A DNA stretch of 50,425 bases from Thermoanaerobaculia bacterium (GTDB taxonomy: Bacteria; Acidobacteriota; Thermoanaerobaculia; UBA5066). Shown piece by piece: positions 2,516-50,296 of this stretch. Below the pieces are notes generated by a model, which was not told the DNA's origin, ran no database searches, and worked only from the letters and a program-made list of their open reading frames with translations. The position numbers and the translations under genes are program-made. How positions within the stretch are numbered: position 1 is the stretch's first letter; every line of letters starts with the position of its first letter. The stretch lies in contig JAJVIN010000056.1 of the NCBI GenBank assembly GCA_022071945.1, positions 1 to 50,425 of the forward strand, written 5' to 3'.

Positions 2516-3072
2516 TGCGAGGGCATCGCTGGCGCGCCGGGAGCGAGGTCGCCGCGCGGGCGCGGGAGCTGAGGCGGTCAGAGACCGACGCTGAGGAGGT
2601 CCTGTGGGCGAGCCTGCGGGACCGAAAGCTCGGAGGGATGAAGTTCAGGCGGCAGCACCCCTTCGATATGTTCATCCTGGATTTCTTCTGTCCCGAGAAG
2701 GGGCTCTGTGTTGAAGTGGACGGCAGTATTCACGGCGAGAAGGACCAGAAGGCCCGTGATGCCGAAAGGGATGCGGTCCTCCGGGCACGAGGCGTGAAGG
2801 TCCTTCGTTTTCGGAACGAGGAAGTCGAAGCCGATCTTCCCTCCGTGCTGGAGGCGATCACTCGAGAGGCCGGGGTGGGCCCTCATCCCCCGGCCCCTTC
2901 TCCCGCGAGTGCGGGAGAAGGGGAGCCCGTCTCCCCCCGTGGGGAGGCCCCTCCCGTCCCCGGGGAACCCTCTCCCGCACTGGCGGGAGAGGGTCGCGCG
3001 AAGCGCGGGGTGAGGGCCCTCCGGGGCCATGGCGGTTCCGCCCTTGACCCCAAGGAACCTGGGAGACGCTGA
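2515..3072 (+). CDS. DUF559 endonuclease-domain protein
   Basis: This 185-residue protein has a DUF559 domain at about residues 8-120, a Vsr-like PD-(D/E)XK fold. Visible landmarks are RARELRRSETDAEEVLW, the LGGMKFRRQHP segment, an EVDGSIHG motif with the likely acidic metal ligands, and a closing FRNEEVE. It is probably a small DNA nuclease of unknown role. Its ATG overlaps the TGA of the receptor fragment (ATGA), which suggests translational coupling. From about residue 122 the protein is low-complexity Pro/Gly/Glu sequence encoded by two palindromic repeats, so the functional protein probably ends near residue 120 and the frame simply reads through. Its stop abuts the next receptor's ATG. 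A decayed copy lies after the second receptor. Confidence 0.75.
   Translation: MRGHRWRAGSEVAARARELRRSETDAEEVLWASLRDRKLGGMKFRRQHPFDMFILDFFCPEKGLCVEVDGSIHGEKDQKARDAERDAVLRARGVKVLRFRNEEVEADLPSVLEAITREAGVGPHPPAPSPASAGEGEPVSPRGEAPPVPGEPSPALAGEGRAKRGVRALRGHGGSALDPKEPGRR
2894..2993. repeat. Two palindromic REP-like hairpins inside the DUF559 3' end
   Basis: The first hairpin pairs 2894-2906 with 2911-2923 (13-bp perfect stem, 4-base loop). The second pairs 2968-2978 with 2983-2993 (11-bp stem, core CCCTCTCCCGC). The same CCCTCTCCC(C)G-type sequence recurs near 6165-6180 and in the cassette at 10861-11122, so it is a dispersed repeat of this genome. Here it is translated as the C-terminal tail of the DUF559 protein. 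Confidence 0.75.
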
Positions 3073-6032: not shown

Positions 6033-6166
6033 CGGGACGGCGTCGCTGGCGCGCCGGGAGCGATGTCGCCGCTCGTGCGCGGGAACGGAGGCATTCCTCC
6101 ACAGGCCTGGAGGAGACACCGTGGGAGGGCCTTCGGAACCGACAGCTCGGAGCGATGAGGTTCACG
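6032..6166 (+). pseudogene. DUF559 endonuclease remnant
   Basis: Immediately after the receptor stop the sequence repeats the start of the DUF559 gene at 2515 (RRWRAGSDVAARARERR against HRWRAGSEVAARARELR). It continues to GAMRF, equivalent to GGMKF. The start codon at 6032 is ACG where the intact copy has ATG. Homology stops after the MRF codons and jumps to a CGGGAGAGGGTCGCGCG repeat like the one at the intact gene's 3' end. The central and catalytic parts are therefore deleted and the copy cannot be functional. It shows that the receptor and nuclease were duplicated as one unit. Confidence 0.75.
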
Positions 6167-6285
6167 GGAGAGGGTCGCGCGCGGCGCTGGGTGGGGGCCC
6201 CCCTGGACCATTCCGCCTCACCCTTCCACCGCCCGGCGGACCGTGTTCCCCACCCGTGCCATCCAGAGAGACATGGGAGACGCAC

Positions 6286-9255
6286 ATGACGAAGACCACG
6301 TTTCGGCCGCTTCTCGCGCTCCTTCTCAGCTGGGTGCCGTCGGTGGCCTTTGCCCAGACGACGGGCGAACTGACGGGACGTGTCATCGATTCGACGAACG
6401 TCCCGATCGCGGGCGCCCTGGTCGAGGTCAAGTCGCCCGCGTTGATGCGTCCGCGTCAGACGGGAACGGACAAGGAGGGGCGCTACCGGTTCCAACTCCT
6501 CCCGCCCGGGACCTACGAGGTGATGGCGCGGATGACGGGCTTTGTCGACGCGATCCGGACGGACATCCGGATCCCTCTCGGCGAGACGATCACGGTCCCG
6601 ATGACTCTGACCGTCACGGCGACGGCCAGCGTCGAGGTGGATACGACCCCGCCCTTGCTCGACGTGGAGAACGCCAAGGCCGGAATCACGGTGAACCAGA
6701 AGGTCCTCCAGAACCTCCCGCTCGGGCGGAATTACGCCTCCGCGGCAGCCCTCGTCCCAGCGACGGGCACCGATGCCCTCGGCCCAACCTTCTATGGCGC
6801 GTCGAGCCTCGAGAACTCCTACCAGATCGATGGCCTCAATACCACCGCCGTAAAGAGAGGGGGGCAAGGAAAGAGCGTGCCCTTGGAGTTCGCGCAGGAG
6901 GTCGAGATTCGCTCCGGCGGCTATGAGGCCGAGTACGGGAAGGCCCTCGGCGGGAACATCAACCTGCTCACGAAGTCCGGCGGACCCCAATTCACCGGTA
7001 ATATGTTTGGGTACTTCACGAATGAGTCGATGAGTGCCGCGGATCAGCACGAGGCCGACCGGCTGGCGGTCAGGGCTCCTGCTGTCGAGCTTCCCCGTCA
7101 GTACGATGTCGGATTGAGCCTCGGAGGCCCCCTCTTTCGCGACCGGATCTGGTTCTTTGGAGCGTACGACAAGGCGAGGACGGACCAGGATTACCGTGCC
7201 GTTGATCACTACACGTATTCCTCGACGGGAGTCGCAACGCCGACATATGAGACCCGAACCGACAGCGCCTCCGAGAACCTGTTCGCCCTGAACTTCTCCT
7301 GGATGCCCGACACGGCGCACAACGTGAGCGTGTCGGTTTTCGGCGATCCCTCGACAGAGCAGGCCCGCGGTTGGGATCCCGCGGTACTCCCGTCTGGCCG
7401 CGCTGGGCCTGCCTCTGCGACGGTCACGGAGAAGAAGACCGGGGGAACGGACCTTTCGGCTCGCTGGATGGGCTTCCTGGGAAAGTCCATTGTCGAAGTG
7501 CAGTACGGCTACCACAGTGAGAACGACAAGGAGTGGGGCGACTACGTGGACCGTCCCGTCGTCGAGGAGTCTCGTTCCGGACTCGTCCAGTTCACGCCGA
7601 ACTCCGGCCCCTGGACGCGTGGCGGTTATTATGGGGAACTCATCGACGAGACATTTCGACGGAATGCATGGCTGGGGACCTGGGCTTTTCCCTTGGCAGG
7701 TCACGATCTGAAGCTCGGTGCGGCGTACGAACTCGAAAACCCGAACCGGACGGCCGGGTGGAGCGGGGGCGAGTGGATTCGGAACTACTACCGAACCGAC
7801 GGCTCATACGACTACAGCAGGCATGTTTACAACGCAAAGACTCCACTCAACTGCACCAAGCTGACGAGCGGTGAGACGGGGAACTTCGGCTACATCGACC
7901 ATCTGCAGTGCATGGCCTGGGAGAAGGCGGAGGCAGTGAGGTCTGACGTGAGAACGAAGACCTTCTCGGGATTCATCCAGGATTCCTGGCGCCCGCTGAC
8001 CAATCTGACAGTGAAAGCGGGCGTGAGATATGACCGTCAGGAACTCATGGCCACCGATGGCGCCGTTGCCGCGAGGTTCGATGACCAGTGGTCTCCCAGG
8101 CTCTCCGTGGCGTGGGATCCTGCCGGGAATGGACGCACCAAGGTCGCGGCTTCATACGGACGTTACTACCAGGCGTTCCCTCAGTTCGCCCAAATTAGTC
8201 ATCTCTCCGGGGAGTTCACTGTTACAGCCTGGAACGAATCACCGGGCGTGGATCCCGTCGCCTCATTCGACTATGCATACCTCTTGAAACCCATCTACAT
8301 GGCTGATGATCTCAAGGGGTCGTTCCAGGATGAGATCGCCGTTGGGGGCGAACTTCAGGCGGGGCGTAGCCTGTCCATCGGGATACGGGGCCTCTACAGA
8401 GGCCTGGGTCGCGCCTGGGAAGACAGGTGTGACCTCTTGGACCCGGGCCAGGGGCTTGCAGGTCTCACGCCACCCGGCTATCACGACAACTGCGCCATGG
8501 TGAATCCGGGCGAGGGCGAACTCGGTCAGTTACGCGATCCCGCCAACCCGGATTGCTTCGAGGATTTCCCCGCGAATACGAAGCCGAAGCCCTGTGAAAG
8601 CGTGAGGGCGAGACGCTACTACAGGGGAGTCGAGCTTTCCGTTCACTATCGCCCGACGGAAGAAGCCTGGGCACAAGCGAGCTATGTCTATTCGAGGCTT
8701 ACGGGGAATTTCGAAGGGCTCGTTGTCCACGGCGCTTCAGGCGGCCAGCAGACCGATCCCGGCAATAGCACCACCTTCGATCTCCCCGCCTCGCTCACTG
8801 ATAACTTCGGCAGGCTCCCGAATGACCGCACACATCAGGTGAAGGTCTCGGGGTCTTACACGCTTCCACTCGGTCTTACCGCGGGCGTGATCGCGCAGTA
8901 TTGGTCCGGCGTGCCCCTGTCCGTCTATGGCGCCAAGCCCGATTTCTATTTCCTCTGGACGGCGGGTTTCCTCGCGCCGCGAGGCTCCCAGGGCGAGATG
9001 CCCTCGACCTACAACATCGACCTCCATCTTCACTACACCACGACCATCGGCAACGTCACCGTTACCCCGGCGCTCGACATCTTCAATCTGACGAACGTTC
9101 AGCGGGCCCTGACGCGCTTCCAGGCGTACAACACCGTGGCGACCAACGCGAACAACCAGCCTCCCTTCACGAATCCGACGCATCCGGATTTCGGGAAAGA
9201 CGTTTCCTGGCAGAGACCACGCCTGATCCGGCTCGGACTGAAGGCGGCGTTCTAG
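6286..9255 (+). CDS. Oar-like TonB-dependent receptor, copy 3 (intact)
   Basis: This receptor has 989 residues when started at the ATG at 6286, which follows GGGAGA at good spacing and begins a signal peptide (MTKTTFRPLLALLLSW ... FAQ). The open frame extends upstream to 6121 only through the decayed DUF559 and repeat sequence. Domain order matches copy 2: regulatory-like Ig-fold domain at about 25-115, plug at about 115-240 with EAEYGKALGGNIN, then a barrel ending KAAF. A short near-identical block (CSVEVDTTPPLLDVENAKAG region) between copies 2 and 3 suggests recent duplication or gene conversion. The next gene, a Ser/Thr kinase, starts 19 bases after the stop and may be cotranscribed. Confidence 0.88.
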   Translation: MTKTTFRPLLALLLSWVPSVAFAQTTGELTGRVIDSTNVPIAGALVEVKSPALMRPRQTGTDKEGRYRFQLLPPGTYEVMARMTGFVDAIRTDIRIPLGETITVPMTLTVTATASVEVDTTPPLLDVENAKAGITVNQKVLQNLPLGRNYASAAALVPATGTDALGPTFYGASSLENSYQIDGLNTTAVKRGGQGKSVPLEFAQEVEIRSGGYEAEYGKALGGNINLLTKSGGPQFTGNMFGYFTNESMSAADQHEADRLAVRAPAVELPRQYDVGLSLGGPLFRDRIWFFGAYDKARTDQDYRAVDHYTYSSTGVATPTYETRTDSASENLFALNFSWMPDTAHNVSVSVFGDPSTEQARGWDPAVLPSGRAGPASATVTEKKTGGTDLSARWMGFLGKSIVEVQYGYHSENDKEWGDYVDRPVVEESRSGLVQFTPNSGPWTRGGYYGELIDETFRRNAWLGTWAFPLAGHDLKLGAAYELENPNRTAGWSGGEWIRNYYRTDGSYDYSRHVYNAKTPLNCTKLTSGETGNFGYIDHLQCMAWEKAEAVRSDVRTKTFSGFIQDSWRPLTNLTVKAGVRYDRQELMATDGAVAARFDDQWSPRLSVAWDPAGNGRTKVAASYGRYYQAFPQFAQISHLSGEFTVTAWNESPGVDPVASFDYAYLLKPIYMADDLKGSFQDEIAVGGELQAGRSLSIGIRGLYRGLGRAWEDRCDLLDPGQGLAGLTPPGYHDNCAMVNPGEGELGQLRDPANPDCFEDFPANTKPKPCESVRARRYYRGVELSVHYRPTEEAWAQASYVYSRLTGNFEGLVVHGASGGQQTDPGNSTTFDLPASLTDNFGRLPNDRTHQVKVSGSYTLPLGLTAGVIAQYWSGVPLSVYGAKPDFYFLWTAGFLAPRGSQGEMPSTYNIDLHLHYTTTIGNVTVTPALDIFNLTNVQRALTRFQAYNTVATNANNQPPFTNPTHPDFGKDVSWQRPRLIRLGLKAAF

Positions 9256-33105: not shown

Positions 33106-34660
33106 TCCTGCCGGAGATCGGGCCGAAGAACGAGAGACAGAAGTTCCGGGTGCGAAAATGACAGACAAGGAGAAGCGGCGATGGACATGGCAGTGGCGGA
33201 AGCCATCAAGGCTCTTTCCTGTGAGGATCCGCGCGCGAGGCAAGGCGCCGCCAACAGGCTTGGCCGAGTGCTCACGGAGAGTTCCATCGACGGGACTCCG
33301 GCCGTCCCCGCGCTGGCGCAGGCTGTCAGCGACCCTGACACCGGCCTGGCTGGTGCCGCGGCGAACACCCTTCGGATCATCGCCCAGTACCGTCGCGGAA
33401 ACATTGGAGAGGCTGTTGCGGCCCTTGCGCGCGCGGTTCCGTCGGCAGATCAGGAACTCAGAAAGAACGCGGCAGAGGCCCTCATCGAGGCCGCGGAGAA
33501 CGGCCCGGGAATCGCGCCGGCAGTGCCAGCTCTCGAGGCCGCGCTGACGCACAAGATGAAGCACGTGCGGATGCTGGCGACCTCCGCCCTCGCCGCGCAC
33601 TTGGTCGACCGGAAGGACCTCCCACGTCTCGAGCACCTCGTCACCGCCCACCCGCGAGCAGATGTCCGGGAAAGGGCGGCAGGCTACCTGCGGCGCGGCG
33701 CCGAGTGGAAGGACATCTCGTTTGCTGTGCCACTCCTCTGCCGTGTTCTGAAAGCGGGAGAGGCATCCGCCCGGAGGAGAACCGCGCAGGTCCTTGAGGC
33801 CTATCTCTCGGGGCCGAAGGGGGTCGCGATCCCGCTCGCCACGAGAAGGGACTGCGCCCGGGCGATCCTCGAATGCTTGACGACCCTCGAGGGCGAGCAG
33901 ACGCCCGAGATTCGCGAACTCCGCGAGAGGGCCTCCCTTGCGCTGCGTGGAGCCGTCTCACCCGATGAACTCGAGGCCGCCATTGCGGCCCTCCGCGAGG
34001 AGGACGTGCCGGCGCGGGGGGAAGCGGCCTACACGCTCCAACTCGCGTCGAACGCGGGGATCGACATCGAAGCGGCCGTGCCCTATCTGCAGGCCCTCCT
34101 GGACGGAGGCGAGGAGGAGCGGCCCGCCGTCGTGTTCGCGCTCGTGAAGCACCTCCTGAACCGTCGCGCCTACGCGCTGGTCGGCAAGCTCCTCGCGCAC
34201 CGGGAACCCGAAGTCCGAGCGGAGGCGCTGACGCGGATCGACCTCGAGGCGATCGAAAGCACCACGAACCTCACGCCGCTTGTCGGCCCGGTGAGCGGAC
34301 TGCTCAAGGACGAGATCGCTGAGGTCCGAGAGCGCGCCGCCGGAGTCCTCCGGTCCTTCGCCATGTTCGGAAGCGCGGCAGACAAGACCGACCTCTCCGC
34401 TGCCGCCGCGGGCCTTCAGGCGGCACGCGACGGCGGCGATGAGAGCGTCGCCAAGACCGCGGGGCAGGCTCTTCGGATCGGCGCTGGATTCGGGAAGCTC
34501 CCGCCGGACCGGAAGACACCGGCCGGCAGCCCTCCTCCCGACCGGTGCATGCACGGCTCGCCACGCGATCCCGAGACCGGCCAGTACCTCTGCGGATGGT
34601 GTTGAACACGAGGCGGAAGGGTGCTGCAGCCTGAGCCCCCGGGCCTTCATCGCGAACGGA
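33106..34660. repeat. Direct duplication, left copy
   Basis: This segment is repeated at about 38570-40127. It contains a whole HEAT-repeat gene plus about 75 bases upstream (TGCCGGAG..CGGG.CGAAGAAC... to AAGGAGAAGCGGCGATG) and about 55 bases downstream (GAGGCGGAAGG...CTTCATCGCGAA). Differences between copies are scattered point changes, with no indel in the coding part (both 474 codons). Confidence 0.85.
33181..34605 (+). CDS. HEAT-repeat protein, copy A
   Basis: A 474-residue all-helical protein built of HEAT/PBS-lyase-like repeats (DPRARQGAANRLGRVL, DPDTGLAGAAANTLRII, ADQELRKNAAEALIEAA, HKMKHVRMLATSALAAH, HREPEVRAEALTRID). The last roughly 20 residues form a small Cys/His group (CMHGSPRDPETGQYLCGWC) that could bind zinc. 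There is no signal peptide or membrane helix, so it is probably a cytoplasmic scaffold. AAGGAG precedes the ATG. A nearly identical copy of the same length lies at 38646. The two flank three minus-strand genes. Confidence 0.85.
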   Translation: MDMAVAEAIKALSCEDPRARQGAANRLGRVLTESSIDGTPAVPALAQAVSDPDTGLAGAAANTLRIIAQYRRGNIGEAVAALARAVPSADQELRKNAAEALIEAAENGPGIAPAVPALEAALTHKMKHVRMLATSALAAHLVDRKDLPRLEHLVTAHPRADVRERAAGYLRRGAEWKDISFAVPLLCRVLKAGEASARRRTAQVLEAYLSGPKGVAIPLATRRDCARAILECLTTLEGEQTPEIRELRERASLALRGAVSPDELEAAIAALREEDVPARGEAAYTLQLASNAGIDIEAAVPYLQALLDGGEEERPAVVFALVKHLLNRRAYALVGKLLAHREPEVRAEALTRIDLEAIESTTNLTPLVGPVSGLLKDEIAEVRERAAGVLRSFAMFGSAADKTDLSAAAAGLQAARDGGDESVAKTAGQALRIGAGFGKLPPDRKTPAGSPPPDRCMHGSPRDPETGQYLCGWC

Positions 34661-38569: not shown

Positions 38570-40127
38570 GCCCTGCCGGAGTTCGGGACGAAGAACCGGA
38601 AACAGAACTCCCAGGTGCGAAAATGAGAAACAAGGAGAAGCGGCGATGGAAAGGGCAGTTGCGGAAGCCATCAAGGTGCTCTCCTGTGAGGATCCGCGCG
38701 AGAGGCAAGGCGCCGCCAACAGGCTCGGCAGAGTGCTCGCGGAGAGTTCCATCGACGGGACTCCGGCCGTCCCCGCGCTGGCGCAGGCTGTCAGCGACCC
38801 TGACACCGGCCTGGCTGGTGCTGCGGCGAACACCCTTCGGATCATCGCCCAGTACCGTCGCGGCGACATTGGAGAGGCGGTTGCGGCCCTTGCGCGCGCG
38901 GTTCCGTCGGCAGATCAGGAGCTCAGAAAGAACGCGGCCGAGGCACTCGTCGAGGCAGCGGAGAACGGTCCGGGGATCGCGCGGGCAGTGCCAGTTCTCG
39001 AGGCCGCGCTGACGCACAAGATGAAGCACGTGCGGATGCTGGCGACCTCCGCCCTCGCCGCGCACTTGGTCGACCGGAAGGACCTCGCACGTCTCGAGCA
39101 ACTCGTCACCGCCCACCCGCGTGCAGACGTCCGGGAAAGGGCGGCGGGCTACCTGCGGCGAGGGGCCGAGTGGAAGGACATCTCGTTTGCCGTGCCACTC
39201 TTGTGTCGCGTCCTGAAAGCAGGCGAGGCATCCGCCCGGAGGAGAGCCGCTCAGGTCCTTCACGCCTACCTCTCCGGGCCGAAGGGGGTCGCGATCCCGC
39301 CCACCACGAGAAGGGACTGCGCCCGGGCGATCCTCGAGTGCTTGACGACCCTCGAGGGCGAGGAGATGCCAGAGATTCGCGAACTCCGCGAGAGGGCCGT
39401 CCTGGCGGTGCGCGGAGCCGTCTCACCCGATGAGCTCGAGGCCGTCATTGCCGCCCTCCGCGGGGAAGACGGGGAGGCGCGGCAGGAGGCGGCCTACACG
39501 CTCCAACTCGCGTCGAATGCGGGGAGCGACATCGAAGCGGCCGTGCCCTATCTGCAGGCCCTCCTGGACGGAGGCGAGAAGGAGCGGCACGCCGTCGTGT
39601 TCGCGCTCGTGAAGCACCTCCTGAACCGTCGCGCCTACGTGCAGGTGGGGAGAGTCCTCGCGCACCGCGAACCCGGAGTTCGAGAGGAGGCGCTGACCCG
39701 GATCGACCTCGAGGCGATCGACAGCACCACGAACCTCACGCCGCTCGTCGGCCCGGTGAGCGGGCTGCTCAAGGATGAGAACGCCGAGGTCCGTGAACGT
39801 GCCGCCGGAGTCCTCCGGTCCTTCGCCATGTTCGGAAGCGCGACGGACGAGACCGACCTCTCCGCTGCCGCGGCGGGCCTTCGGGCGGCACGCGACGGCG
39901 GCGATGAGAGCGTCGCCGAGACCGCTGGTCAGGCTCTGCAGATCGGCGCCGGACTCGGGAAGCTTCCGCCGAACCGGAAGCCACCGGCCGGCAGCCCTCC
40001 GGCCGACCGGTGCATGCACGGCTCGCCGCGGGATCCCGAGACGGGCCAGTACCTCTGCGGATGGTGTTGAGCGGGAGGCGGAAGGTGCTGCACGCAGCCT
40101 GGTTCCGCAGGTCTTCATCGCGAAGGG
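38570..40127. repeat. Direct duplication, right copy
   Basis: This is the second copy of the segment at about 33106-34660, in the same orientation. Its right edge falls in a minus-strand reading frame fragment (about 40140-40336), and its left edge lies about 140 bases from the zinc-ribbon start codon. The copies could recombine and loop out the 4 kb between them. Confidence 0.85.
38646..40070 (+). CDS. HEAT-repeat protein, copy B
   Basis: A 474-residue paralogue of the protein at 33181, with the same start (AAGGAGAAGCGGCG before the ATG), the same repeat register and the same C-terminal CMHGSPRDPETGQYLCGWC group. Substitutions are mostly conservative (Ala/Gly, Asp/Glu) and both copies appear intact, which suggests recent duplication with both still under selection. 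It is probably a cytoplasmic scaffold. The zinc-ribbon gene is divergent to its left; mobile-element remnants begin to its right. Confidence 0.85.
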   Translation: MERAVAEAIKVLSCEDPRERQGAANRLGRVLAESSIDGTPAVPALAQAVSDPDTGLAGAAANTLRIIAQYRRGDIGEAVAALARAVPSADQELRKNAAEALVEAAENGPGIARAVPVLEAALTHKMKHVRMLATSALAAHLVDRKDLARLEQLVTAHPRADVRERAAGYLRRGAEWKDISFAVPLLCRVLKAGEASARRRAAQVLHAYLSGPKGVAIPPTTRRDCARAILECLTTLEGEEMPEIRELRERAVLAVRGAVSPDELEAVIAALRGEDGEARQEAAYTLQLASNAGSDIEAAVPYLQALLDGGEKERHAVVFALVKHLLNRRAYVQVGRVLAHREPGVREEALTRIDLEAIDSTTNLTPLVGPVSGLLKDENAEVRERAAGVLRSFAMFGSATDETDLSAAAAGLRAARDGGDESVAETAGQALQIGAGLGKLPPNRKPPAGSPPADRCMHGSPRDPETGQYLCGWC

Positions 40128-40336: not shown

Positions 40337-40637
40337 ATAAGAGAATCAGAGGCGGGCCGACGAAGAGAAGAGATCCGAGAAGCCCCTCTTTAGGAAAGAG
40401 AGGACTGCACCCGGCTGGCGTCGGGCTCTTGGGGTAAGAAACGAAAGGCCTTCTGGGGAGAATGAGCTGGGGTCTCCTGGCGAGCTATGACTGAGTTCCC
40501 ACTGGTGTTTGCCGTACCCGAAAAAGAGGAAAGTCCTGGGGATAGCGGTTCAGGTATTGGTGAGGTCTGTCGCGGACCATCCCGTTTGAGAGAGTTTCTG
40601 GCTGTCCGCTCCCAGGGCCAGGAGACCCCGAGGAGGT

Positions 40638-41460
40638 ATGATGGTCACCCGCAACCTTCCGACGAAACCGGGAATCCAGGGTGACCTTCTGGCCCTGTTC
40701 CGGGGAGCCATTGGCTTGGTCCTGGAAGTCCTTCTCGAGCAGCAGGTCCGAGAGATGGTCGGAGCCCGACGATATGAGCGTGTGGGCAGCAGGAAGGACC
40801 ATCTGGACGGCACCTACATTAGACGTGAGCTGACGTCGATGGGGCTGATCGAGATGCAGGTGCCCTCGACGCGAAAACAAGGCTCACCCTTGGAGACGAT
40901 CGGGCGCTACGAACGACGGACCGCAGAGGCCGACGGGATGACCAAGGTGGCGTACGTGAAGGGCGTGTCGACGAGGGACGTGCGGCAGGTCACTGAAGCC
41001 TCGATGGGCGAGGGAGTGGGGTGATCGAGGGTCGGCCGCGTAACGGGACGCCTCGCCCAAAGCTCGGAGGACCTGCCGACAGCGCGGATCACGGACCCGA
41101 TTTCGCATCTGTACCTCGACGAGACGTTCATCAAGGCGCGCTGGGCGAGATCGGTGGAGGAGGTCTCCGTCCTGGTGGCCTAAGGCGTCAACAACGATGG
41201 CAACCGGCGTCTTCTGGCTGTCACGCGCGGCTCGCAGGAGAACGAGACGAGTTGGACGGAGCCTCTCGAGGGCCTCGTAGTCCGTGGGCTGATGGGAGTG
41301 TGCCTCGTGATCACCGATGCGCACGCAGGGCTCGCCAAAACCGTCCGCCGGCAGCTTCCGGAGGTGACGCATCAGCGCGGCACGGTTCACCTCACACGCA
41401 ACGTGCTGGACAAGACACCCTGGCAGTTACGGGCCTGCGTTGCTGAAGAACTCCGCAGGG
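40638..41460 (+). pseudogene. IS256/Mutator-family transposase, degenerate
   Basis: The reading frame begins at an ATG after AGGAGG and reads as a Mutator-type transposase (LLEQQVREMVGARRYER, RNLPTKPG, MTKVAYVKGVSTRDV). In-frame stops occur at 41022 (TGA) and 41181 (TAA), and the same frame continues with the DDE core (LYLDETFIKARW, LLAVTRGSQENETSW, VCLVITDAHAGLAKTV). Similarity ends near 41455 (LRACVAEEL), so the C-terminal part with the last catalytic Glu is missing. Because all parts share one frame, the decay is by nonsense changes and 3' truncation, not frameshift. No terminal inverted repeats were identified. It sits directly upstream of the lanthipeptide operon. Confidence 0.8.
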
Positions 41461-41655
41461 CCACCCCGTCCCCTTCACCCGTGCGGCCGCAACCCGTTTC
41501 AATCACCCAGCACCGAGAACAGGTCCCTCTCCGCCGCCCTTTCCATTTCTACACGCAGATCGGAACTTGACCCGGTATTCCCGGGGATGATCTCTATCGG
41601 GAGGCACCCGAGGATCTCTCTGGGGAACTGATCGAGACGAAGCGGAAGATGAGAC

Positions 41656-41684: not shown

Positions 41685-41841
41685 TTTCCACCCTAGCCCG
41701 ACAAGGAAAAGGACATCTTGGGCCCCGGCTTGCCCTCCAGACCCAATATGTCTGCTGACGAGTCTTGCTCGGCCTGTTGATCTGGAACGCGCAACCCCGA
41801 GAACCCTCTGACGCTGGGAAAACGAAGAAGGAGACAAAACA

Positions 41842-42012
41842 GTGACGGAACCGAAAGAAGAAAAGGCCCCCGAGGAAGTCCTGCGTGTCAAGAAGGAGAC
41901 CATCAAGGACCTGCCAGTTCAACCGGAAAAGGACCGGGATGTGGTAGGGGGTGGTGGGGGTAGCCCATCCAGACCCCGGACCGGTACGGACTACACATGT
42001 CCGGTCTGCTGA
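41842..42012 (+). CDS. lanA: Class I lanthipeptide precursor peptide
   Basis: A 56-residue peptide starting at GTG 41842, with AAGGAG eight bases upstream. The leader (about 1-40) is acidic/Lys-rich and contains LRVKKETIKDL, the L-x-(L/V)-KKETI-x-x-L pattern of class I lanthipeptide leaders bound by LanB. It ends in VVGGGGG, a double-glycine-type cleavage region. The C-terminal core is SPSRPRTGTDYTCPVC: five Ser/Thr for dehydration, two Cys (residues 53 and 56) for rings, and two Arg (44 and 46) that the downstream arginase could turn into ornithine. Rings Thr49-Cys53 and Thr52-Cys56 are sterically reasonable guesses. LanC, LanB and arginase genes follow on the same strand. This small gene is easily missed by gene callers. 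Confidence 0.88.
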   Translation: MTEPKEEKAPEEVLRVKKETIKDLPVQPEKDRDVVGGGGGSPSRPRTGTDYTCPVC

Positions 42013-42015
42013 ACC

Positions 42016-42081
42016 GAAGCCTGTAAGGCTTCAGACAAACAGAGTCGCGGCGGCCTTCTCCAACGGACTGAGACCGCCGCG
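42016..42081 (+). terminator. Hairpins after precursor gene, possible attenuator
   Basis: Four bases after the stop, GAAGCC (42016-42021) pairs with GGCTTC (42027-42032). A second stem pairs CGCGGCGG (42046-42053) with CCGCCGCG (42074-42081), followed by a short pyrimidine run (TTCTTCTC). Between a RiPP precursor and its enzyme genes such structures commonly stabilise the precursor mRNA or allow partial read-through, giving more precursor than enzyme. Confidence 0.5.
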
Positions 42082-42167
42082 TTCTTCTCGACGTCGGGTT
42101 TCCTTGTTCCCTCGGGCGGCCGAAGATCACGCTTGTTTGCAGACCGCCAGATGTTCATGAGGTGACC

Positions 42168-43442
42168 ATGTGGACGGCCTTGCTCGTCGGATCCCTAGCC
42201 GAGAGAGCCTTGAATAGTGCTGTTGAAATCGCAAGAACTCTGAGCAAGCTGCAGCCCTACGAACTCAGGGCTCCCCTGGACGCCAACCCGGATCCATCAC
42301 TCGCAACCGGAGCCAGTGGCGTGGCCTCTTGCCTTGAGTACCTGGCTGAGTCCGGGGTCTTTCCCGACGGTCGCGCGAAGGCCCGGGAGTTCTTCGGGTT
42401 TGCTGCCGATGTCATGTCCTCAGAGCGTCTCAATCCCTCACTGCTGGATGGCTTCACTGGCATCGGGTGGGTTGCCAGGCGACTCGTTCGAGGTCTGCAC
42501 GAATTCCATGAGACGGATGTTCTGACCGATGTCGACTCCGAGCTCCTCGCAGTCCTCGTCCGCTCTCCCTGGAAAATGGACTATGACCTGGTCAGCGGTC
42601 TCGCAGGACTCGGACTTTACGCCCTGGGTCGCTTACCGCGTACCGCCGCCAGAAAAGCTCTGTCGAGGATCGTGGACCATCTGGCCGGAATTTCGGAGGT
42701 TTCAGGCCCGGGAATCACATGGCACACTCGCCCGGAATTGCTGACTGATCTCCAGAGAGCGGTCTTTCCGGAAGGCCACTACAATCTTGGCCTTGCTCAC
42801 GGTGTCCCGGGCGTTATCGGGTTGCTCGGACAAATCTGTTCTTCGGGCACTGGCGAGTGCGAGGAGAAAGCCCGCAGACTTCTCTCTGGAGCCGTGGCCT
42901 GGATGCTCGGGAACAAGCAGGAAGGGTCTGCGCGATTCCGGCATTGCGCGGGTCCTGGGGTCTTGAGGCGTGAAATCAGATCCGCATGGTGCTACGGAGA
43001 CCCGGGCATCGCGGCAGCGCTGCTCGTTGCAGCCCGGGGTGCCAAGGAGAAGGCCTGGGAGCAAGAAGCCATCGAATTGGCGCGTCACGCCGCGGCCCGG
43101 CCATTCGAGGAAGCCGGTGTGATCGATCCGGGACTCTGCCACGGCGCGGCTGGACTCGCCCATATTTTCAACCGTTTCTACCAGGAGACCGGCGACCCGA
43201 CCTTCGGCCGGGCGGCAACGTTCTGGTTCGAGAAGACTCTCGATATGCGCCGGCCCGGGATGGGGCTAGCAGGGTACAGCTCGGCTGTGAAACTCTACGG
43301 CGAACTCAGTTACCTGAAAGATCCGAGTTTCTTGACCGGCGCGGCGGGCATCGCCATGGCGCTCACTGCGGCCGCCACCGAGGCAGAACCGAATTGGGAC
43401 CAAGTCCTGCTGCTCTCGCCTGTGCGGAGATCGCAACAGTGA
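42168..43442 (+). CDS. lanC: LanC-type lanthipeptide cyclase
   Basis: A 424-residue protein from the ATG at 42168, preceded by GAGGTG; a GTG at 42162 is the alternative. LanC enzymes are zinc-dependent alpha-toroids that add Cys thiols to dehydrated Ser/Thr to form (methyl)lanthionine. The family repeats are visible: GLAHGVPGVIGLLG (about residue 207), WCYGDPGIAAALL (about 274, first zinc Cys) and LCHGAAGLAHIF (about 323, second zinc Cys and His). All three zinc ligands are present and the length is normal. The TGA overlaps the GTG start of lanB. It lies 155 bases after the precursor stop. Confidence 0.92.
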   Translation: MWTALLVGSLAERALNSAVEIARTLSKLQPYELRAPLDANPDPSLATGASGVASCLEYLAESGVFPDGRAKAREFFGFAADVMSSERLNPSLLDGFTGIGWVARRLVRGLHEFHETDVLTDVDSELLAVLVRSPWKMDYDLVSGLAGLGLYALGRLPRTAARKALSRIVDHLAGISEVSGPGITWHTRPELLTDLQRAVFPEGHYNLGLAHGVPGVIGLLGQICSSGTGECEEKARRLLSGAVAWMLGNKQEGSARFRHCAGPGVLRREIRSAWCYGDPGIAAALLVAARGAKEKAWEQEAIELARHAAARPFEEAGVIDPGLCHGAAGLAHIFNRFYQETGDPTFGRAATFWFEKTLDMRRPGMGLAGYSSAVKLYGELSYLKDPSFLTGAAGIAMALTAAATEAEPNWDQVLLLSPVRRSQQ

Positions 43443-46400
43443 CTTCGAAGGAACGTGTCCCGTCGCGGCCTCACTTCTTTGTGTTGCGAACACCATTGTT
43501 GTCATTCGACGAGTTTCTGACCTGGAGTGAGGGGTCAGCAGCGGCCGTCCAGGAAGGAAGCCGCGAACGGCTGGAATTAGCTCTCGACGAAGATCGCAAG
43601 TCCCAAAGGAAACGTCTTCAGGAACTGATTACGCGGCCCGAACTCCGGGAGGCGCTCTTCTTGGCCTCGCCGGATCTCGAGAGCGCTCTGGAGCACTGGT
43701 TGCGAGACCCGGACAGCGAGAAGGGCGAGCGAGCCGAGCGAGCAGCGGTCAAGTACTTTTCTCGAATGTCTGGCCGCGCGACGCCGTTCGGGCTGTTTGC
43801 GGGCGGCTGCACGGGACTCCTTGGAGAGAAGACCCGGCTGGTGCTGGCCCCGCGTGAGACCTCGAAGCGCCATTCCCGCCTTGATATGGACTACCTCTTC
43901 GTCCTATCGGAGGCGATAAATGGGGACCACGCGCTCAGAAGCAGCCTGGGATTTCGCCTCAACTCTACCCTGTACCGGGCTGGCGAACGCTATCGATACG
44001 TTGAATCGCGGGTTCACAAGCATGAACGGACTTACCACCTCGTCGCCGTCGAGGCGACTCCGCACCTTCAGAAGATCCTGGAGAGAGCAGAACGCGGGGC
44101 TCGCCTGGAAGACCTGGCGGCCTCCCTGGTGGACGAGAACATCACCGCTCAGGAGGCCAGATCCTACGTCAACGAGCTAGCCGATTCTCAGATCCTGATA
44201 CCCGACACAGGGATGGTGATCACGGGCCGGGAGCCTGCCAGTCTCATGGCAGAAAGGCTGGGTCAGTTCGCGGAAACGAGAGTAATCGGAAGCCGCCTCC
44301 AGGACGTAAACCACCAGTTGGATGTCATTGATGCTGGCGGACTCGGCGCCGCCCCTGGCCGCTACAGAGAGCTGGTAGCTCTGCTAAGGGACCTTCCGGC
44401 CAAGCCCGAGTTGGCACGACTCTTTCAGGTCGACCTCATGAAGACCGGAGTCAACGTCTCACTAGGAAAGGCGGTTGCCGAAGAAGTAAGGCGGGGGATC
44501 GAAGTTCTTCACAGACTCTCGACACCACGGAACTCCCCATTGCCTGCCTTCAGAGAGGCTTTTACTGAACGGTACGAAGAGCGTGAGATTCCGCTCGTCG
44601 AGGCGCTCGACGAGGAAAGAGGAATTGGCTTCCCCGCTTTTCAAGACGAGGACGCAGCCCAGGCACCCCTCTTGGTGGGGATCCGGTTTCCCAAGGCCCA
44701 TGATGACAGCGTGAGCTGGGGTCCCCGTGAAGCTCTCCTGTTGAGGAAAGTCGGTCAGGCGCTGGCGCGGGACGAAGACGAGATGTTGCTCGATGATGCA
44801 GCCCTCGAGATCCTGACTAACAGGGAGCGACTCCCCCTGCCCAGCGTTTTCGGAGCACTCGTCCGACTGGTGGCATCCTCTGACGAGGAGCTGGACCGGG
44901 GAAACTTCCGCATTCACCTGGAATCAGCCGGCGGACCATCAGGAGCGACGTTCCTGGGGCGATTCTGTCATGGAGACCAGGACCTCTGCCGGCTCGTAGA
45001 AGAGCATCTGAAAGCGGAAAAGGCACTCGAGCCGGACGCCCTCCTCGCCGAGGTGGTTCACCTTCCCGACGGTCGAACGGGGAATGTCATTTCGAGACCG
45101 CTCTTCCACGACTATGAGATCCCGTTTCTGGGCTCATCTGGAGCTCCACTGGAACGGCAGATTCCAGTGTCAGATCTTCTGATCTCGGTTCGCGGTGGAG
45201 AGATCCAGCTGCGCTCAAAGCGGCACGGCCAGCGAATCCTCCCACGGCTCACGACAGCCCACAACTACGCACGCTACGGTCTCAGTCTCTACAGATTCCT
45301 TTGCGCACTGCAGGCCCAGACCACGACGGCAGGGCTGGCGTGGCGCTGGGGACCACTCTCGTCTCTTCCGTTCCTCCCCCGAGTCCGGTACGGGCGGACG
45401 GTTCTTGCTCCGGCGCAGTGGAACGTCGAAACGAGTGAACTGAAGGAACTTGGAAAACGCCTAGACGGCCGCGGGTTTGACGCACTCAGGCGGTGGCGCC
45501 GCGAACACCGCATCCCCCGTTTCGTGATGTTTGGGACCACGCATGAAATCCCGGTCGATTTCGATTCGGTCCTCTCGGCAGAGGCTTTCCTCAGCCTCGT
45601 GCGGAACGGGGAACCGGTCGAACTCCGAGAGATGCTCCCCGGCCCCGAGGAACTCTGTGCGCGGGGCCCGGAAGGCCGCTACGTCCATGAACTGTTGATC
45701 CCGTTCGTGGGGCAGTCCTCGGCGGCAAGCCGCCCTCTCCAGCCTTCCCCTGAGAGAGCGAGGCGGACCTTCTTGCCCGGTTCGGAGTGGCTTTACGCAA
45801 AGTTCTATGGCGGGAACGTCACGCTCGATCAGGCCCTAGTGAAAACGATCGGCCCTTTTGCGGCTTCGGTCGTGGCGTCAGGGACTGCGGACTCATGGTT
45901 CTTTGTGAGGTACGCCGATCCAAGACCACACCTTCAGATTCGTTTTCGCGGCGATTCGGCCCGGCTTCGCGAGAGCATCCTCCCGGATTTGAACCGGATG
46001 GCCGAGGGTCTTGCCTCTCGAGGTCAGATTTGGAGGATGCAGATCGACACCTACGAGCGCGAGATCGAGAGGTACGGAGGAGTCGAAGGCGTCGAAATCG
46101 CCGAGCGGTTCTTTCACTTCGACAGCGAGACAGTCCTGACGATTCTGAAGATGTTGGAACATGGAGAGGCCGGTCACAACGAGCGCTGGCACATGGCCCT
46201 GCTCGGGACAGATGCCCTTCTCGAGGACTTTGGTCTGTCTTTCGAGGAGAAACGTAAGTTCTCCGCTCAGGCGCAACAGGCTCTTGGTGCCGGAAAGGAC
46301 GAAGATCCCGACTTCAGGCGGACGCTAGGGGATCGATACCGCAAGGACGGTCGTGGGCTTCTCCCCTTGCTCGAAAGGAAGGGGCTGGAAGAAAGTTCCC

Positions 46401-46645
46401 TCTGGCCAGGCCTGCAAGTCCTGTCCCAGCGCTCGCGCCGCACCGCTCCTCTGGTGGAGGAGTTGCGATCTCTCGAAGCCACGGCCCGACTCGACAGGCC
46501 GGTCCGTGCCGCCGCAGCAAGCTACGTCCACGTGTTCCTCAACAGGGTCTTCCTCACGGCTCACAGGAAGCAGGAACTGGTGGTCTACGATTTCTTGAAC
46601 CGCCTGTACGATGCCATGGCCAGCCGCGGCCTCGCGTCGCGCTGA
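43439..46645 (+). CDS. lanB: Full-length LanB lanthipeptide dehydratase
   Basis: A 1068-residue protein from the GTG at 43439, which overlaps the lanC stop (GTGA); the open frame further upstream is a shadow of lanC. LanB uses glutamyl-tRNA to glutamylate Ser/Thr of the precursor and then eliminates glutamate to give Dha/Dhb. The glutamylation domain spans about 1-700, opening PHFFVLRTPLLSFDEF and containing the diagnostic SGRATPFGLFAGG near 110-122. The SpaB_C-type elimination domain spans about 775-1060, opening SEWLYAKFYGG and including FFVRYADPRPHLQIRFRG. As both halves are in one chain this is a classical class I enzyme, not a split thiopeptide type. The core's five Ser/Thr are the likely targets. 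Confidence 0.92.
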   Translation: MTSKERVPSRPHFFVLRTPLLSFDEFLTWSEGSAAAVQEGSRERLELALDEDRKSQRKRLQELITRPELREALFLASPDLESALEHWLRDPDSEKGERAERAAVKYFSRMSGRATPFGLFAGGCTGLLGEKTRLVLAPRETSKRHSRLDMDYLFVLSEAINGDHALRSSLGFRLNSTLYRAGERYRYVESRVHKHERTYHLVAVEATPHLQKILERAERGARLEDLAASLVDENITAQEARSYVNELADSQILIPDTGMVITGREPASLMAERLGQFAETRVIGSRLQDVNHQLDVIDAGGLGAAPGRYRELVALLRDLPAKPELARLFQVDLMKTGVNVSLGKAVAEEVRRGIEVLHRLSTPRNSPLPAFREAFTERYEEREIPLVEALDEERGIGFPAFQDEDAAQAPLLVGIRFPKAHDDSVSWGPREALLLRKVGQALARDEDEMLLDDAALEILTNRERLPLPSVFGALVRLVASSDEELDRGNFRIHLESAGGPSGATFLGRFCHGDQDLCRLVEEHLKAEKALEPDALLAEVVHLPDGRTGNVISRPLFHDYEIPFLGSSGAPLERQIPVSDLLISVRGGEIQLRSKRHGQRILPRLTTAHNYARYGLSLYRFLCALQAQTTTAGLAWRWGPLSSLPFLPRVRYGRTVLAPAQWNVETSELKELGKRLDGRGFDALRRWRREHRIPRFVMFGTTHEIPVDFDSVLSAEAFLSLVRNGEPVELREMLPGPEELCARGPEGRYVHELLIPFVGQSSAASRPLQPSPERARRTFLPGSEWLYAKFYGGNVTLDQALVKTIGPFAASVVASGTADSWFFVRYADPRPHLQIRFRGDSARLRESILPDLNRMAEGLASRGQIWRMQIDTYEREIERYGGVEGVEIAERFFHFDSETVLTILKMLEHGEAGHNERWHMALLGTDALLEDFGLSFEEKRKFSAQAQQALGAGKDEDPDFRRTLGDRYRKDGRGLLPLLERKGLEESSLWPGLQVLSQRSRRTAPLVEELRSLEATARLDRPVRAAAASYVHVFLNRVFLTAHRKQELVVYDFLNRLYDAMASRGLASR

Positions 46646-46667: not shown

Positions 46668-47972
46668 ATGCAGGATCGAGAGAAGCAATATGTCGTCTGC
46701 CCGGATCTTCTGATCGAGCTGGTTGGCGGATCCAAGAACGAGGTTCGGATCAGGAACAAGGTCTTTCGGACCTGGATCGAGGCTCCAGCAGCCCTCCTGA
46801 TACTGCTTGATTTCCTCCGGCAGCCGCACACCATGGAAGAGATCTCTGCGCAGTCACTGATCGACGAGGATGTCATGGGAATGCTGCTCGCGAGATGGAT
46901 CGTGCTACCGGCCGAGAAAAGAGAACTTCTGGGACCCGGGATCGTGTGCAAAGCCAAAGACAGCATCGGCGTTTCATGCAGTTTTGACGATCTTGTAAAA
47001 CTCGGCTCACGGACGAGCTTCGTCGTATTCGGTGTGCCGGTTGACTTGCTGGGCTCGCCAGGAGCGCACGCAGGACCTGCACAGACTCGGCTCTATTCGC
47101 TCCTCCGGGGAATGGAAGGCGTCTGTGAAGGCGAGGGAGAGACGAGGGTCCTCCCACAGGACGTCGAGATTCTCGACGTCGACAGGAGAAAGAGCTTCAG
47201 TTTTCGGGACCAGGACAGGTACGCGATTCTCGACGCGGGTGACATTGCCTACGTGCGAGGAGAGTCGATAGCCAACGTCGGCGAGCGCATTGAACGGCTA
47301 GTGGCTGCCGTGCTTGCACGTCAGATGACGCCGGTCATGATTGGCGGCGACCACTCCATGACGTGGTTTTCTCTCAAGGTCCTCCTTGATACGTACCCAA
47401 AGATGGGCGTGCTCCACTTCGACGCCCATCACGACCTCTACTTTTCGCCGTCGGATCTGCTGCCACTCCGCAATAGCAATCCATTCGCGCATGCCCGCAA
47501 GAGCACGTCCCTGGCTTGCTTGCGACAGTTTGGTCTGCGCACGGTCGAATATTACAGGAAGAAGACAGCCAGCAAGACCCTCGACCCGCGAATCTCCTAT
47601 TGGTCTGCACGGGAACTGCAGCGTATGTCCCCGGAGGAAGCCCTTGTTGGCCTCGACCGGGACATCCCCTATTATCTCAGTTTCGACATCGACTGTGTGT
47701 GCCCTGAAGAGGCACCCGAAACAGGCAGTCCTGTCTGCGGCGGTCTCTCGTACTATCAGGTGTTCGAACTCATGGACGCCATCATCGGCAAGTTCGACAT
47801 TGTCGGTGCCGATTTCGTTGAAGTGGCTTCGCCGAAGACGGGGCCGGCAAATAGGGCCGCAATGATCACTGCACGGTTGCTCGACATGTTGTTGCTGAGT
47901 CGGATCCTCTCAAGCGAGCTCGATAGTTATCTCTTCGAGAAGAGGGAGTGGCAGCCAGGCGAGTTGCCATAG
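46668..47972 (+). CDS. Putative peptide arginase with N-terminal RRE-like domain
   Basis: A 434-residue protein from the ATG at 46668, preceded by AGGA, 22 bases after lanB. Residues about 110-430 form an arginase/agmatinase ureohydrolase domain with the manganese ligands in GGDHSMTW (about 225), FDAHHDLY (about 251) and SFDIDCVCPEEAP (about 337); GSPVCGGLSY follows. The usual DP after the second Asp pair is CP. Residues 1-95 are an extra domain whose pattern (LLILLDFLRQPHTMEEIS, then DVMGMLLARWIVLPAE) resembles PqqD/RRE winged helices that hold RiPP leaders. Peptide arginases such as OspR (landornamide pathway) convert Arg in a precursor to ornithine. Here the core has two Arg. Free arginine or agmatine as substrate cannot be excluded. 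Confidence 0.82.
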   Translation: MQDREKQYVVCPDLLIELVGGSKNEVRIRNKVFRTWIEAPAALLILLDFLRQPHTMEEISAQSLIDEDVMGMLLARWIVLPAEKRELLGPGIVCKAKDSIGVSCSFDDLVKLGSRTSFVVFGVPVDLLGSPGAHAGPAQTRLYSLLRGMEGVCEGEGETRVLPQDVEILDVDRRKSFSFRDQDRYAILDAGDIAYVRGESIANVGERIERLVAAVLARQMTPVMIGGDHSMTWFSLKVLLDTYPKMGVLHFDAHHDLYFSPSDLLPLRNSNPFAHARKSTSLACLRQFGLRTVEYYRKKTASKTLDPRISYWSARELQRMSPEEALVGLDRDIPYYLSFDIDCVCPEEAPETGSPVCGGLSYYQVFELMDAIIGKFDIVGADFVEVASPKTGPANRAAMITARLLDMLLLSRILSSELDSYLFEKREWQPGELP

Positions 47973-48743: not shown

Positions 48744-49652
48744 ATGATAGGAATTCCTTGCCGGTACCTTCTTCGAGTCAAGCAGCGCATGCGAGTTGTG
48801 TCCTATGCGAAGGAGAACGGGATACGGCCTGCGGCCCGGCACTTCGCGCTCTCCCGCCAAACGGTGCGGAAGTGGCTCAGGAGCTACCAGGCCAGAGGGG
48901 CGGAGGGGTTGATCCCTCTCTATGCGGAGCGTCGCGAGGCCCGACTCCAGCCCGCGGTGATCGAGCTCCTCCGCCAGGCGCGAATCGAGCTCCGCATGGG
49001 AGCTGGGCGCACGAGGATCTGGCTCCAGAGAATCCACGGCATTCACCTCCCCGTGGCAACGAGTCAGCGGACGTTCACCAAACTCGGCGTCCCGAGGCTT
49101 CCCTCGCGAAGGCCACGCAAGCGGCGGCCCCGCCAGATGAGCCTTTTCGAGAAGGACCAACCGGGCGACTCGGTCCAGGTTGATACGAAGCGCGTTCGCA
49201 TCGGTCGCCGCCTCGCTTTCCAGTTCACCGCGATCGACGATTGCTCCCGATATCGAGTCCTGCGCGCTTACCCGCGGTTGTATGGGGGAGCGAGCCGTCG
49301 TTTCCTTCACATCCTCCGCCAGGAGTTCCCATGCCGGATACGCCGCATTCAGGTGGACAACGGCACGGAGTTCCCGCTGGACTTCGACCTGGATGCCAGG
49401 GCTGCCGGCATCGAGGTGACGCGGATCCGCCCCCGGTGCCCGATGCAGGACGGCAAGGTGGAGCGAAGTCATCGCGTTGATGACGAGGAGTCCTGGCTGC
49501 GGGAAAGGCCTCAGAGCTTCCCAGACGCTGGGGCCGGCTTGGCGTTTTGGGAGTAGCGCTACAACAACGAGCGCTTCTCTCTCGCCCTTGGCGGCCTGAC
49601 GCCAGTCGAGAAACTGCGGCTCAAACCGGGCGAACCGCCAGGGCAGCGATAA
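48744..49652 (+). pseudogene. IS481-family transposase with in-frame amber codon
   Basis: An ATG preceded by AAGGAGG begins a transposase with an N-terminal helix-turn-helix (RPAARHFALSRQTVRKWLRS) and an rve/DDE integrase core: Asp in QVDTKRVRIG, Asp in QVDNGTEFP and Glu in GKVERSHR. The frame stops at TAG 49554-49556 right after AGLAFWE, but the same frame continues with RYNNERFSLALGGLTPVEKL to a TAA at 49650-49652. IS481 members normally read W-x-x-YN-x-x-RPH-x-ALGG-x-TP here, so the TAG probably replaced a sense codon. The element interrupts glgP at its left. Exact terminal repeats were not identified. Confidence 0.82.
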
Positions 49653-50186: not shown

Positions 50187-50188
50187 CG

Positions 50189-50296
50189 CGTTTCGGAGGA
50201 ACGTGAACACGCGTTTCGGAAGAACGTGAACGGCTGTTTCGGGATCGTGAACACCAATTTCGGGAACGTGAACACCTGTTTCGGAAGGGTGTGAAC
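50189..50296. repeat. Five tandem 21-23-bp repeats, IS21-like end
   Basis: TTTCGG recurs at 50191, 50214, 50237, 50258 and 50279, each followed by CGTGAAC (GTGTGAAC in the last) and a four-base variable piece. The spacings are 23, 23, 21 and 21 bases. Imperfect units of this length in tandem resemble the multiple transposase-binding repeats at IS21-family ends and may mark a second insertion sequence continuing beyond the window. There are no spacers of CRISPR type. The family call is tentative. Confidence 0.6.

What the first reader, a model, noticed from the sequence alone, without database searches (positions are those of the whole stretch)
41842..42012. Unlisted 56-codon precursor gene with a two-Cys, two-Arg core
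The GTG-started frame has a strong Shine-Dalgarno, a KKETIKDL-type leader motif, VVGG, and a core SPSRPRTGTDYTCPVC ending at the last codon. With two Cys and five Ser/Thr, at most two rings can form, leaving possible Dha/Dhb. The T-x-x-x-C spacings (49-53, 52-56) suggest interlocked rings at the C-terminus and a linear Pro/Arg N-terminal tail that stays open to the arginase.
Basis: partly seen in the sequence, partly recalled or inferred. Interest (0 to 1): 0.85.

Follow-up and report, generated by a model that had tools for sequence, protein, structure and literature searches.

The report
Lanthipeptide precursor paired with RRE-arginase
A short unannotated gene encodes the raw peptide for a class I lanthipeptide (a ring-containing natural product), in one operon with the two ring-forming enzymes and an unusual arginase with a leader-binding-like domain, which probably turns an arginine of the peptide into ornithine.

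Summary
In detail: 41842-42012 is a GTG-started 56-aa frame with a good Shine-Dalgarno, KKETIKDL, VVGG(GGG) and a core ending in CPVC. It heads an operon: precursor, LanC, LanB, fused arginase. Three tests show it is a real precursor. (1) A leader profile built from 17 precursors of other LanB loci, without this one, ranks it first of 1044 window frames. (2) A second, broken copy of its C-terminal half lies just upstream, ends at the same CxxC-stop and shares PSRP....D.[ST]C..C (p about 5e-6). (3) Relatives carry leader-matched precursors at the same place. The arginase is PF00491, not the OspR type (PF12640), and has an extra N-terminal domain whose weak model matches mostly RiPP recognition elements. 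The only other such fusion found, in Paraliomyxa (Myxococcota), again sits directly behind a class I precursor and LanC. Best reading: an RRE-guided arginase makes ornithine in a LanB/LanC-modified peptide. The interlocked-ring prediction is not supported: Thr49 is not kept in the second copy, while Arg44, Ser/Thr52, Cys53 and Cys56 are. The core has no counterpart in other genomes. Nothing has been tested biochemically. New variant of a known kind.

The parts
41842..42012 (+). Precursor peptide gene, 56 aa, GTG start; leader about residues 1-37 (KKETIKDL 17-24, VVGG 34-37), core within residues 38-56 (GGGSPSRPRTGTDYTCPVC)
   Evidence: homologous precursors
41828..41833 (+). Shine-Dalgarno AAGGAG, 8 nt before the GTG start
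41697..41780 (+). Broken second precursor copy: PDKEKDILGPGLPSRPNMSADESCSAC*, preceded in frame by TAG (41694-41696); no recognisable leader
42016..42085 (+). Two hairpins between precursor and lanC (42016-42032; GC-rich 42041-42085), possible attenuator or processing site
   Evidence: -32.4 kcal/mol, z -2.5, 2 of 200 shuffles as stable; not called by the terminator scan
42162..43442 (+). LanC-like cyclase (PF05147); zinc-ligand motifs WCYG and LCHG present
43439..46645 (+). LanB dehydratase (PF04738 + PF14028), GTG start overlapping the lanC stop by 4 bp
46668..47972 (+). Arginase-superfamily protein (PF00491) with an N-terminal RRE-like domain (about 46683-46925); arginase domain about 47019-47891; six metal ligands H229, D252, H254, D256, D340, D342 present
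40485..41570 (+). Broken Mutator-family transposase remnant just upstream of the cluster
48744..49556 (+). rve-type transposase downstream of the cluster

Best explanation
The frame is the precursor of a class I lanthipeptide. LanB dehydrates some of the five core Ser/Thr, and LanC closes at most two thioether rings on Cys53 and Cys56. The arginase, steered by an N-terminal RRE-like domain that reads the leader, hydrolyses the guanidine of a core Arg, most likely Arg44 in PSRP, to give ornithine and urea. A GG-type protease then removes the leader near VVGG; none is encoded in the cluster. Shown by sequence: precursor frame, operon, enzyme families, intact metal ligands, conserved PSRP and CxxC in a second copy, recurrence of precursor + LanC + fused arginase in another phylum. 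Inferred: RRE function, Arg-to-ornithine chemistry on this peptide, ring formation, cleavage site.
For: Leader profile from other loci ranks the frame 1st of 1044. Leader-matched precursors directly upstream of LanC in homologous loci of many phyla, e.g. L066, L069, L073, L074, L103, L106, L113; six of seven scanned pass NCBIfam's cut-off for lant_leader_L1a, class I lanthipeptide. Nearest LanB relatives, L103 and L106, have leaders ending VVGGGG like the window's VVGGGGG. Second copy upstream. Tight operon. LanB, LanC and arginase domains complete. In L139 (Paraliomyxa miuraensis) a protein 37% identical over its whole length, extra domain included, follows precursor P0005 (22.7 bits against cut-off 22) and LanC, with LanB nearby and Arg in the core. 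The N-terminal domain model has order bbb-aaa, and 10 of its 11 best structural matches are RRE-bearing RiPP proteins (McbBCD, CteB, ThcOx, TbiB1, LynD/TruD heterocyclases; Z 3.9-4.9). None of 13 same-family genomes has a PF00491-like match, so this is not the lineage's housekeeping agmatinase.
Against: No curated model matches the precursor itself and its leader lacks the usual spacing before GG, so leader similarity alone is weak (E 0.094). Its core matches no other genome seen. Only one other fused-arginase cluster was found. Both AlphaFold models have low confidence (pLDDT 53 and 52), and Foldseek gave the N-terminal domain no significant match. Half of 24 cores from loci without arginase also contain Arg. 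No protease or exporter lies in the cluster, transposase remnants flank it and the second copy is broken, so the cluster could be decaying. No expression or product data.
Confidence: 0.68

Rival explanations
1. The frame is a genuine class I lanthipeptide precursor, but the arginase acts on something else: free agmatine/arginine or another guanidine metabolite, and is only a neighbour.
For: By sequence the catalytic domain is closest to agmatinases; arginase is absent from nearly all homologous LanB loci; Arg in cores does not track the arginase.
Against: N-terminal RRE-like domain; the same fusion recurs directly behind a class I precursor and LanC in another phylum; 22 bp from LanB in one operon; no PF00491-like match in same-family genomes.
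Confidence: 0.17
2. The precursor and arginase are real partners, but the thioether pattern differs from the reader's: one ring only (S/T52 to Cys56), another donor for Cys53 (Ser43, Thr47 or none), or a Cys53-Cys56 disulfide.
For: In the second copy position 49 is Ala and 47 is Met, while position 48 is Ser and 52 is Ser; CxxC is kept.
Against: The second copy is broken, so its core may have drifted; LanB and LanC are both complete.
Confidence: 0.5
3. The frame is a chance open frame, and the true precursor is elsewhere in the genome.
For: Short, GTG start, no curated family match.
Against: Top leader match in the window at the expected place; coding-type divergence from a second copy; same gene order in relatives.
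Confidence: 0.05
4. The cluster is a decaying remnant that makes no product.
For: Transposase remnants on both sides, broken second precursor, no local protease or exporter, although homologous loci carry C39-type ABC exporters.
Against: All four main genes are open over full length with catalytic residues present; one C39 exporter exists elsewhere in the genome.
Confidence: 0.15

Closest known systems
Class I lanthipeptides with NCBIfam leader L1a (NF038153)
   Same: LanB + LanC pair, K-L-x-L-x-K-E-T type leader, GG motif, Cys/Ser/Thr core
   Different: The window peptide gives no match to NF038153; it has an RRE-arginase partner and only two Cys; no local exporter or protease
OspR-type peptide arginases (PF12640; landornamide, PMC10028609, PMC12703449)
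   Same: Proposed Arg-to-ornithine step on a RiPP core; loss of the histidine proton shuttle (Ile73 in OspR; Asn269 here by the alignment)
   Different: Different Pfam family; described precursor types are NHLP, N11P, SCIFF, SCCRRSCN and DD(I/V)LF, not LanB/LanC class I; no RRE mentioned in PMC12703449
KgrD, enteropeptin arginase (PF00491; as described in PMC12703449)
   Same: PF00491 arginase acting on a RiPP core Arg
   Different: Acts in a sactipeptide (thiomorpholine) pathway; sequence not compared here, so kinship within PF00491 and presence of an RRE are untested
RRE domains fused to RiPP enzymes (McbB, CteB, ThcOx, LynD/TruD)
   Same: Best structural matches of the N-terminal domain
   Different: Here fused to a ureohydrolase; low-confidence model, no sequence match to a curated RRE family

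Membership tests
Class I lanthipeptide cluster | LanB with both elimination and glutamylation domains | tested here: met
   PF04738 E 2e-163 and PF14028 E 2e-62
Class I lanthipeptide cluster | Separate LanC cyclase | tested here: met
   PF05147 E 3e-41, zinc motifs WCYG and LCHG
Class I lanthipeptide cluster | Adjacent precursor with leader and Ser/Thr + Cys core | tested here: met
Class I lanthipeptide cluster | (Methyl)lanthionine in the product | not testable with these tools
   needs mass spectrometry
NCBIfam NF038153 lant_leader_L1a | Score over the curated cut-off of 22 bits | tested here: not met
   No hit for P0001 at E up to 10, while six of seven neighbour precursors scanned passed the cut-off; leader profile match is only E 0.094
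[quoted passage not shown]
   Only PF00491 found; motifs here are GGDH, FDAHHD, FDIDC
PF00491 ureohydrolase | Family match and six Mn ligands | tested here: met
   E 2.6e-46; H229, D252, H254, D256, D340, D342
RiPP recognition element | Winged-helix bbb-aaa fold like PqqD | tested here: inconclusive
   Right order of elements and RRE-dominated match list, Z 3.9-4.9, but pLDDT 52 and Foldseek E 0.75 or worse
RiPP recognition element | Binds the leader peptide | not testable with these tools
   needs a binding assay
Peptide arginase by activity | Arg to ornithine on the precursor | not testable with these tools
   needs co-expression and mass spectrometry

The most novel reading that the evidence does not exclude
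A previously undescribed family of RiPP maturases: a PF00491 ureohydrolase fused to its own RRE that makes ornithine in class I (LanB/LanC) lanthipeptides, found so far in one acidobacterial and one myxobacterial cluster; the latter also carries a second copy that has lost metal ligands, possibly a non-catalytic partner.
Probability: 0.6. Interest if true: 0.72.

Novelty: new variant of a known kind. Interest (0 to 1): 0.62.

Why it matters
Known peptide arginases are mostly PF12640 enzymes without a described leader-binding domain, and how they recognise substrates is stated to be unclear (PMC12703449). An arginase that carries its own RRE would give a leader-guided, transplantable way to put ornithine into ribosomal peptides, and would join Arg-to-ornithine editing to class I lanthipeptides, for which no case was found in the papers searched. 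The short core with two Arg and two Cys makes the prediction easy to test by mass.

Tried and rejected
First genome-contig scan with the fused arginase (six exact 8-mer patterns) found nothing. Pfam and NCBIfam found no model for the precursor or for the window's and the first Paraliomyxa N-terminal domains. Plasmid search for the arginase gave no place covering 80% of the query, only ordinary ureohydrolase-type matches in the rows listed. BLASTP of the two arginase-linked precursors: no alignment. Fused arginase sought in sampled genomes: 396 of the home phylum (P0003), 379 of the Myxococcota, 246 each of two further phyla, 29 of the Paraliomyxa order and 19 of the home order; only the two known genomes rang with the whole fusion (in large samples only 4-7 candidates per genome were scored). 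DNA-level alignment of the two precursor copies is not significant; the signal is at protein level. Arg content of cores does not separate clusters with and without arginase. Rfam: nothing in the window. Terminator scan: number not above shuffles. LanB tree is only the quick one, many forks open. Foldseek for the N-terminal domain: no significant match.

Full report
OBSERVATION. The frame 41842-42012 is as described: 56 codons, GTG start, AAGGAG 8 nt upstream, KKETIKDL at residues 17-24, VVGGGGG from 34, and a C-terminus SPSRPRTGTDYTCPVC. Residues T49-C53 and T52-C56 are both spaced T-x-x-x-C.

SURROUNDINGS. It is the first gene of a compact operon: precursor; LanC (PF05147, 42162-43442); LanB (PF04738 + PF14028, 43439-46645, start overlapping the LanC stop); and a 434-aa protein (46668-47972) with a C-terminal PF00491 arginase domain. 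Between precursor and LanC are two hairpins (z -2.5), a possible attenuator. Transposase remnants lie on both sides. There is no exporter or protease in the cluster, whereas homologous loci carry ABC exporters with a C39-like start; the genome has one C39 exporter on another contig.

IS THE PRECURSOR REAL? Three lines. First, LanB relatives found in the home phylum and in named genomes have short genes directly upstream of LanC with the leader K-L-x-L-x-K-E-T-[ILV]-x-x-L ... V-x-G-G, e.g. L073 MKAKSKLAPKLSLHRETIKRLTVEDLRAVRGG and L103 MGRTLTLAKETLRVLDDEDLALVVGGGG. Of seven such precursors scanned (Paraliomyxa included), six pass NCBIfam's cut-off for the class I lanthipeptide leader L1a and one (L100) does not match. 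A profile of 17 of these leaders, built without the window, ranks our frame first of 1044 window frames (E 0.094, next 1.2). Second, a broken copy of the C-terminal half lies just upstream at 41697-41780: PDKEKDILGPGLPSRPNMSADESCSAC* against PEKDRDVVGGGGGSPSRPRTGTDYTCPVC*. Its score (68) exceeds all 3000 Markov shuffles (best 56; Gumbel p 4.6e-6, and 5.8e-6 with Gly masked), many changes are conservative, and codon positions differ 11, 7, 17 times, which points to divergence as coding sequence. An in-frame TAG precedes it and no leader is recognisable. Third, gene order matches relatives.

WHAT THE COPY SAYS ABOUT THE CORE. Kept: P42 S43 R44 P45, D50, S/T52, C53, C56 and the stop. Not kept: R46 (Asn), T47 (Met), G48 (Ser), T49 (Ala). 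Hence Arg44 is the better candidate substrate, the T/S52-C56 spacing is conserved, and the T49-C53 ring is not. From memory, nisin's intertwined rings D and E (TATCHC) are a formal analogue; this was not tested.

THE ARGINASE. It is not a PF12640 peptide arginase but PF00491, nearest to agmatinases. All six metal ligands are present. By the alignment the agmatinase His in DHGTMF is Asn269 here; OspR likewise lacks the proton-shuttle His (PMC10028609). About 110 extra N-terminal residues have no Pfam match. Modelled alone (pLDDT 52) they give strand-strand-strand-helix-helix-helix; of 1000 chains realigned, 10 of the 11 best are RiPP proteins known to carry recognition elements: McbBCD, CteB, ThcOx, TbiB1 with leader, and LynD/TruD-type heterocyclases (Z 3.9-4.9, rmsd 2.6-4.2). 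That these proteins contain RREs is established knowledge, not a result of the tool. Z under 8 is weak by the tool's own note, the model is poor, and Foldseek alone was not significant, so this is a strong lead and not proof.

RECURRENCE. Among the 80 LanB loci, one, L139 (Paraliomyxa miuraensis SMH-27-4), has relatives of the fusion that include the extra domain (37% and 33% identity). There the order is precursor (MDQNKKKKLTLDTQTVRRLTKDELNNVRGG-LAIEDADVDAACSYSRTCADSKGGTARRCRN), LanC, fused arginase on one strand, with JmjC/cupin proteins and LanB nearby. A second fused arginase in that locus has lost ligands (D252G, H254Q, D342T) and may be a non-catalytic partner. The two LanBs are not close (quick tree), so the association crosses lineages. 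Searches of sampled genomes found no third case, so the family looks rare. None of 13 same-family genomes has any PF00491-like match, which argues against a housekeeping role.

MECHANISM. Most likely: LanB and LanC read the KETIKDL leader and install up to two (methyl)lanthionines near the C-terminus; the arginase uses its RRE-like domain on the same leader and hydrolyses Arg44, perhaps Arg46, to ornithine; a GG-type protease frees the core. Sequence shows the parts; the reactions are inferred.

KNOWN OR NEW. Class I lanthipeptides with L1a leaders are known; peptide arginases are known (PF12640 with NHLP, N11P, SCIFF, SCCRRSCN and DD(I/V)LF precursors; KgrD of PF00491 in enteropeptins; PMC12703449). 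A PF00491 arginase with an RRE-like domain in a LanB/LanC cluster was not found in the papers held. Hence a new variant of a known kind. The precursor does not pass the L1a model itself and is not filed there; it works like an L1a precursor.

Noticed in passing
window 33181-34605 and 38646-40070: Two near-identical HEAT-repeat proteins both end in CMHGSPRDPETGQYLCGWC, a C-terminal Cys motif faintly like the finding's SPSRPRTGTDYTCPVC; probably coincidence or a zinc knuckle.
   Followed up: partly
L139 19986-21242 (+): Second RRE-arginase-like protein in the Paraliomyxa cluster with metal ligands lost (HFGAQADVY, FDATAL), a likely pseudoenzyme.
   Followed up: partly
L139 7293-8576, 14658-15908, 15898-17019: Three JmjC/cupin-type proteins in the same lanthipeptide locus, possibly hydroxylases of the peptide.
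   Followed up: no
L183 (G000:C1:278000-296000): The genome's only C39-peptidase ABC exporter sits with a second ABC protein, a membrane-fusion-like protein, an outer-membrane efflux protein, a C25 (gingipain-family) peptidase, a B12-binding radical SAM protein and a DUF7005 protein.
   Followed up: partly
L161 6506-8573 (+): Chitinophaga locus with an array of about eight class I precursor-like genes in tandem.
   Followed up: no
L100 4147-4662 (+): Two precursor-like genes with the KLVLxxETL motif but no GG, Arg-containing, ending in CTC; the contig ends inside LanB, so a downstream arginase cannot be excluded.
   Followed up: no
window 188-9255: Three tandem paralogous TonB-receptor-like genes, with a short endonuclease-like frame between two of them.
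   Followed up: no
window 50187-50285: Tandem repeat of about 21 bp, 4.5 copies, near the end of the window.
   Followed up: no
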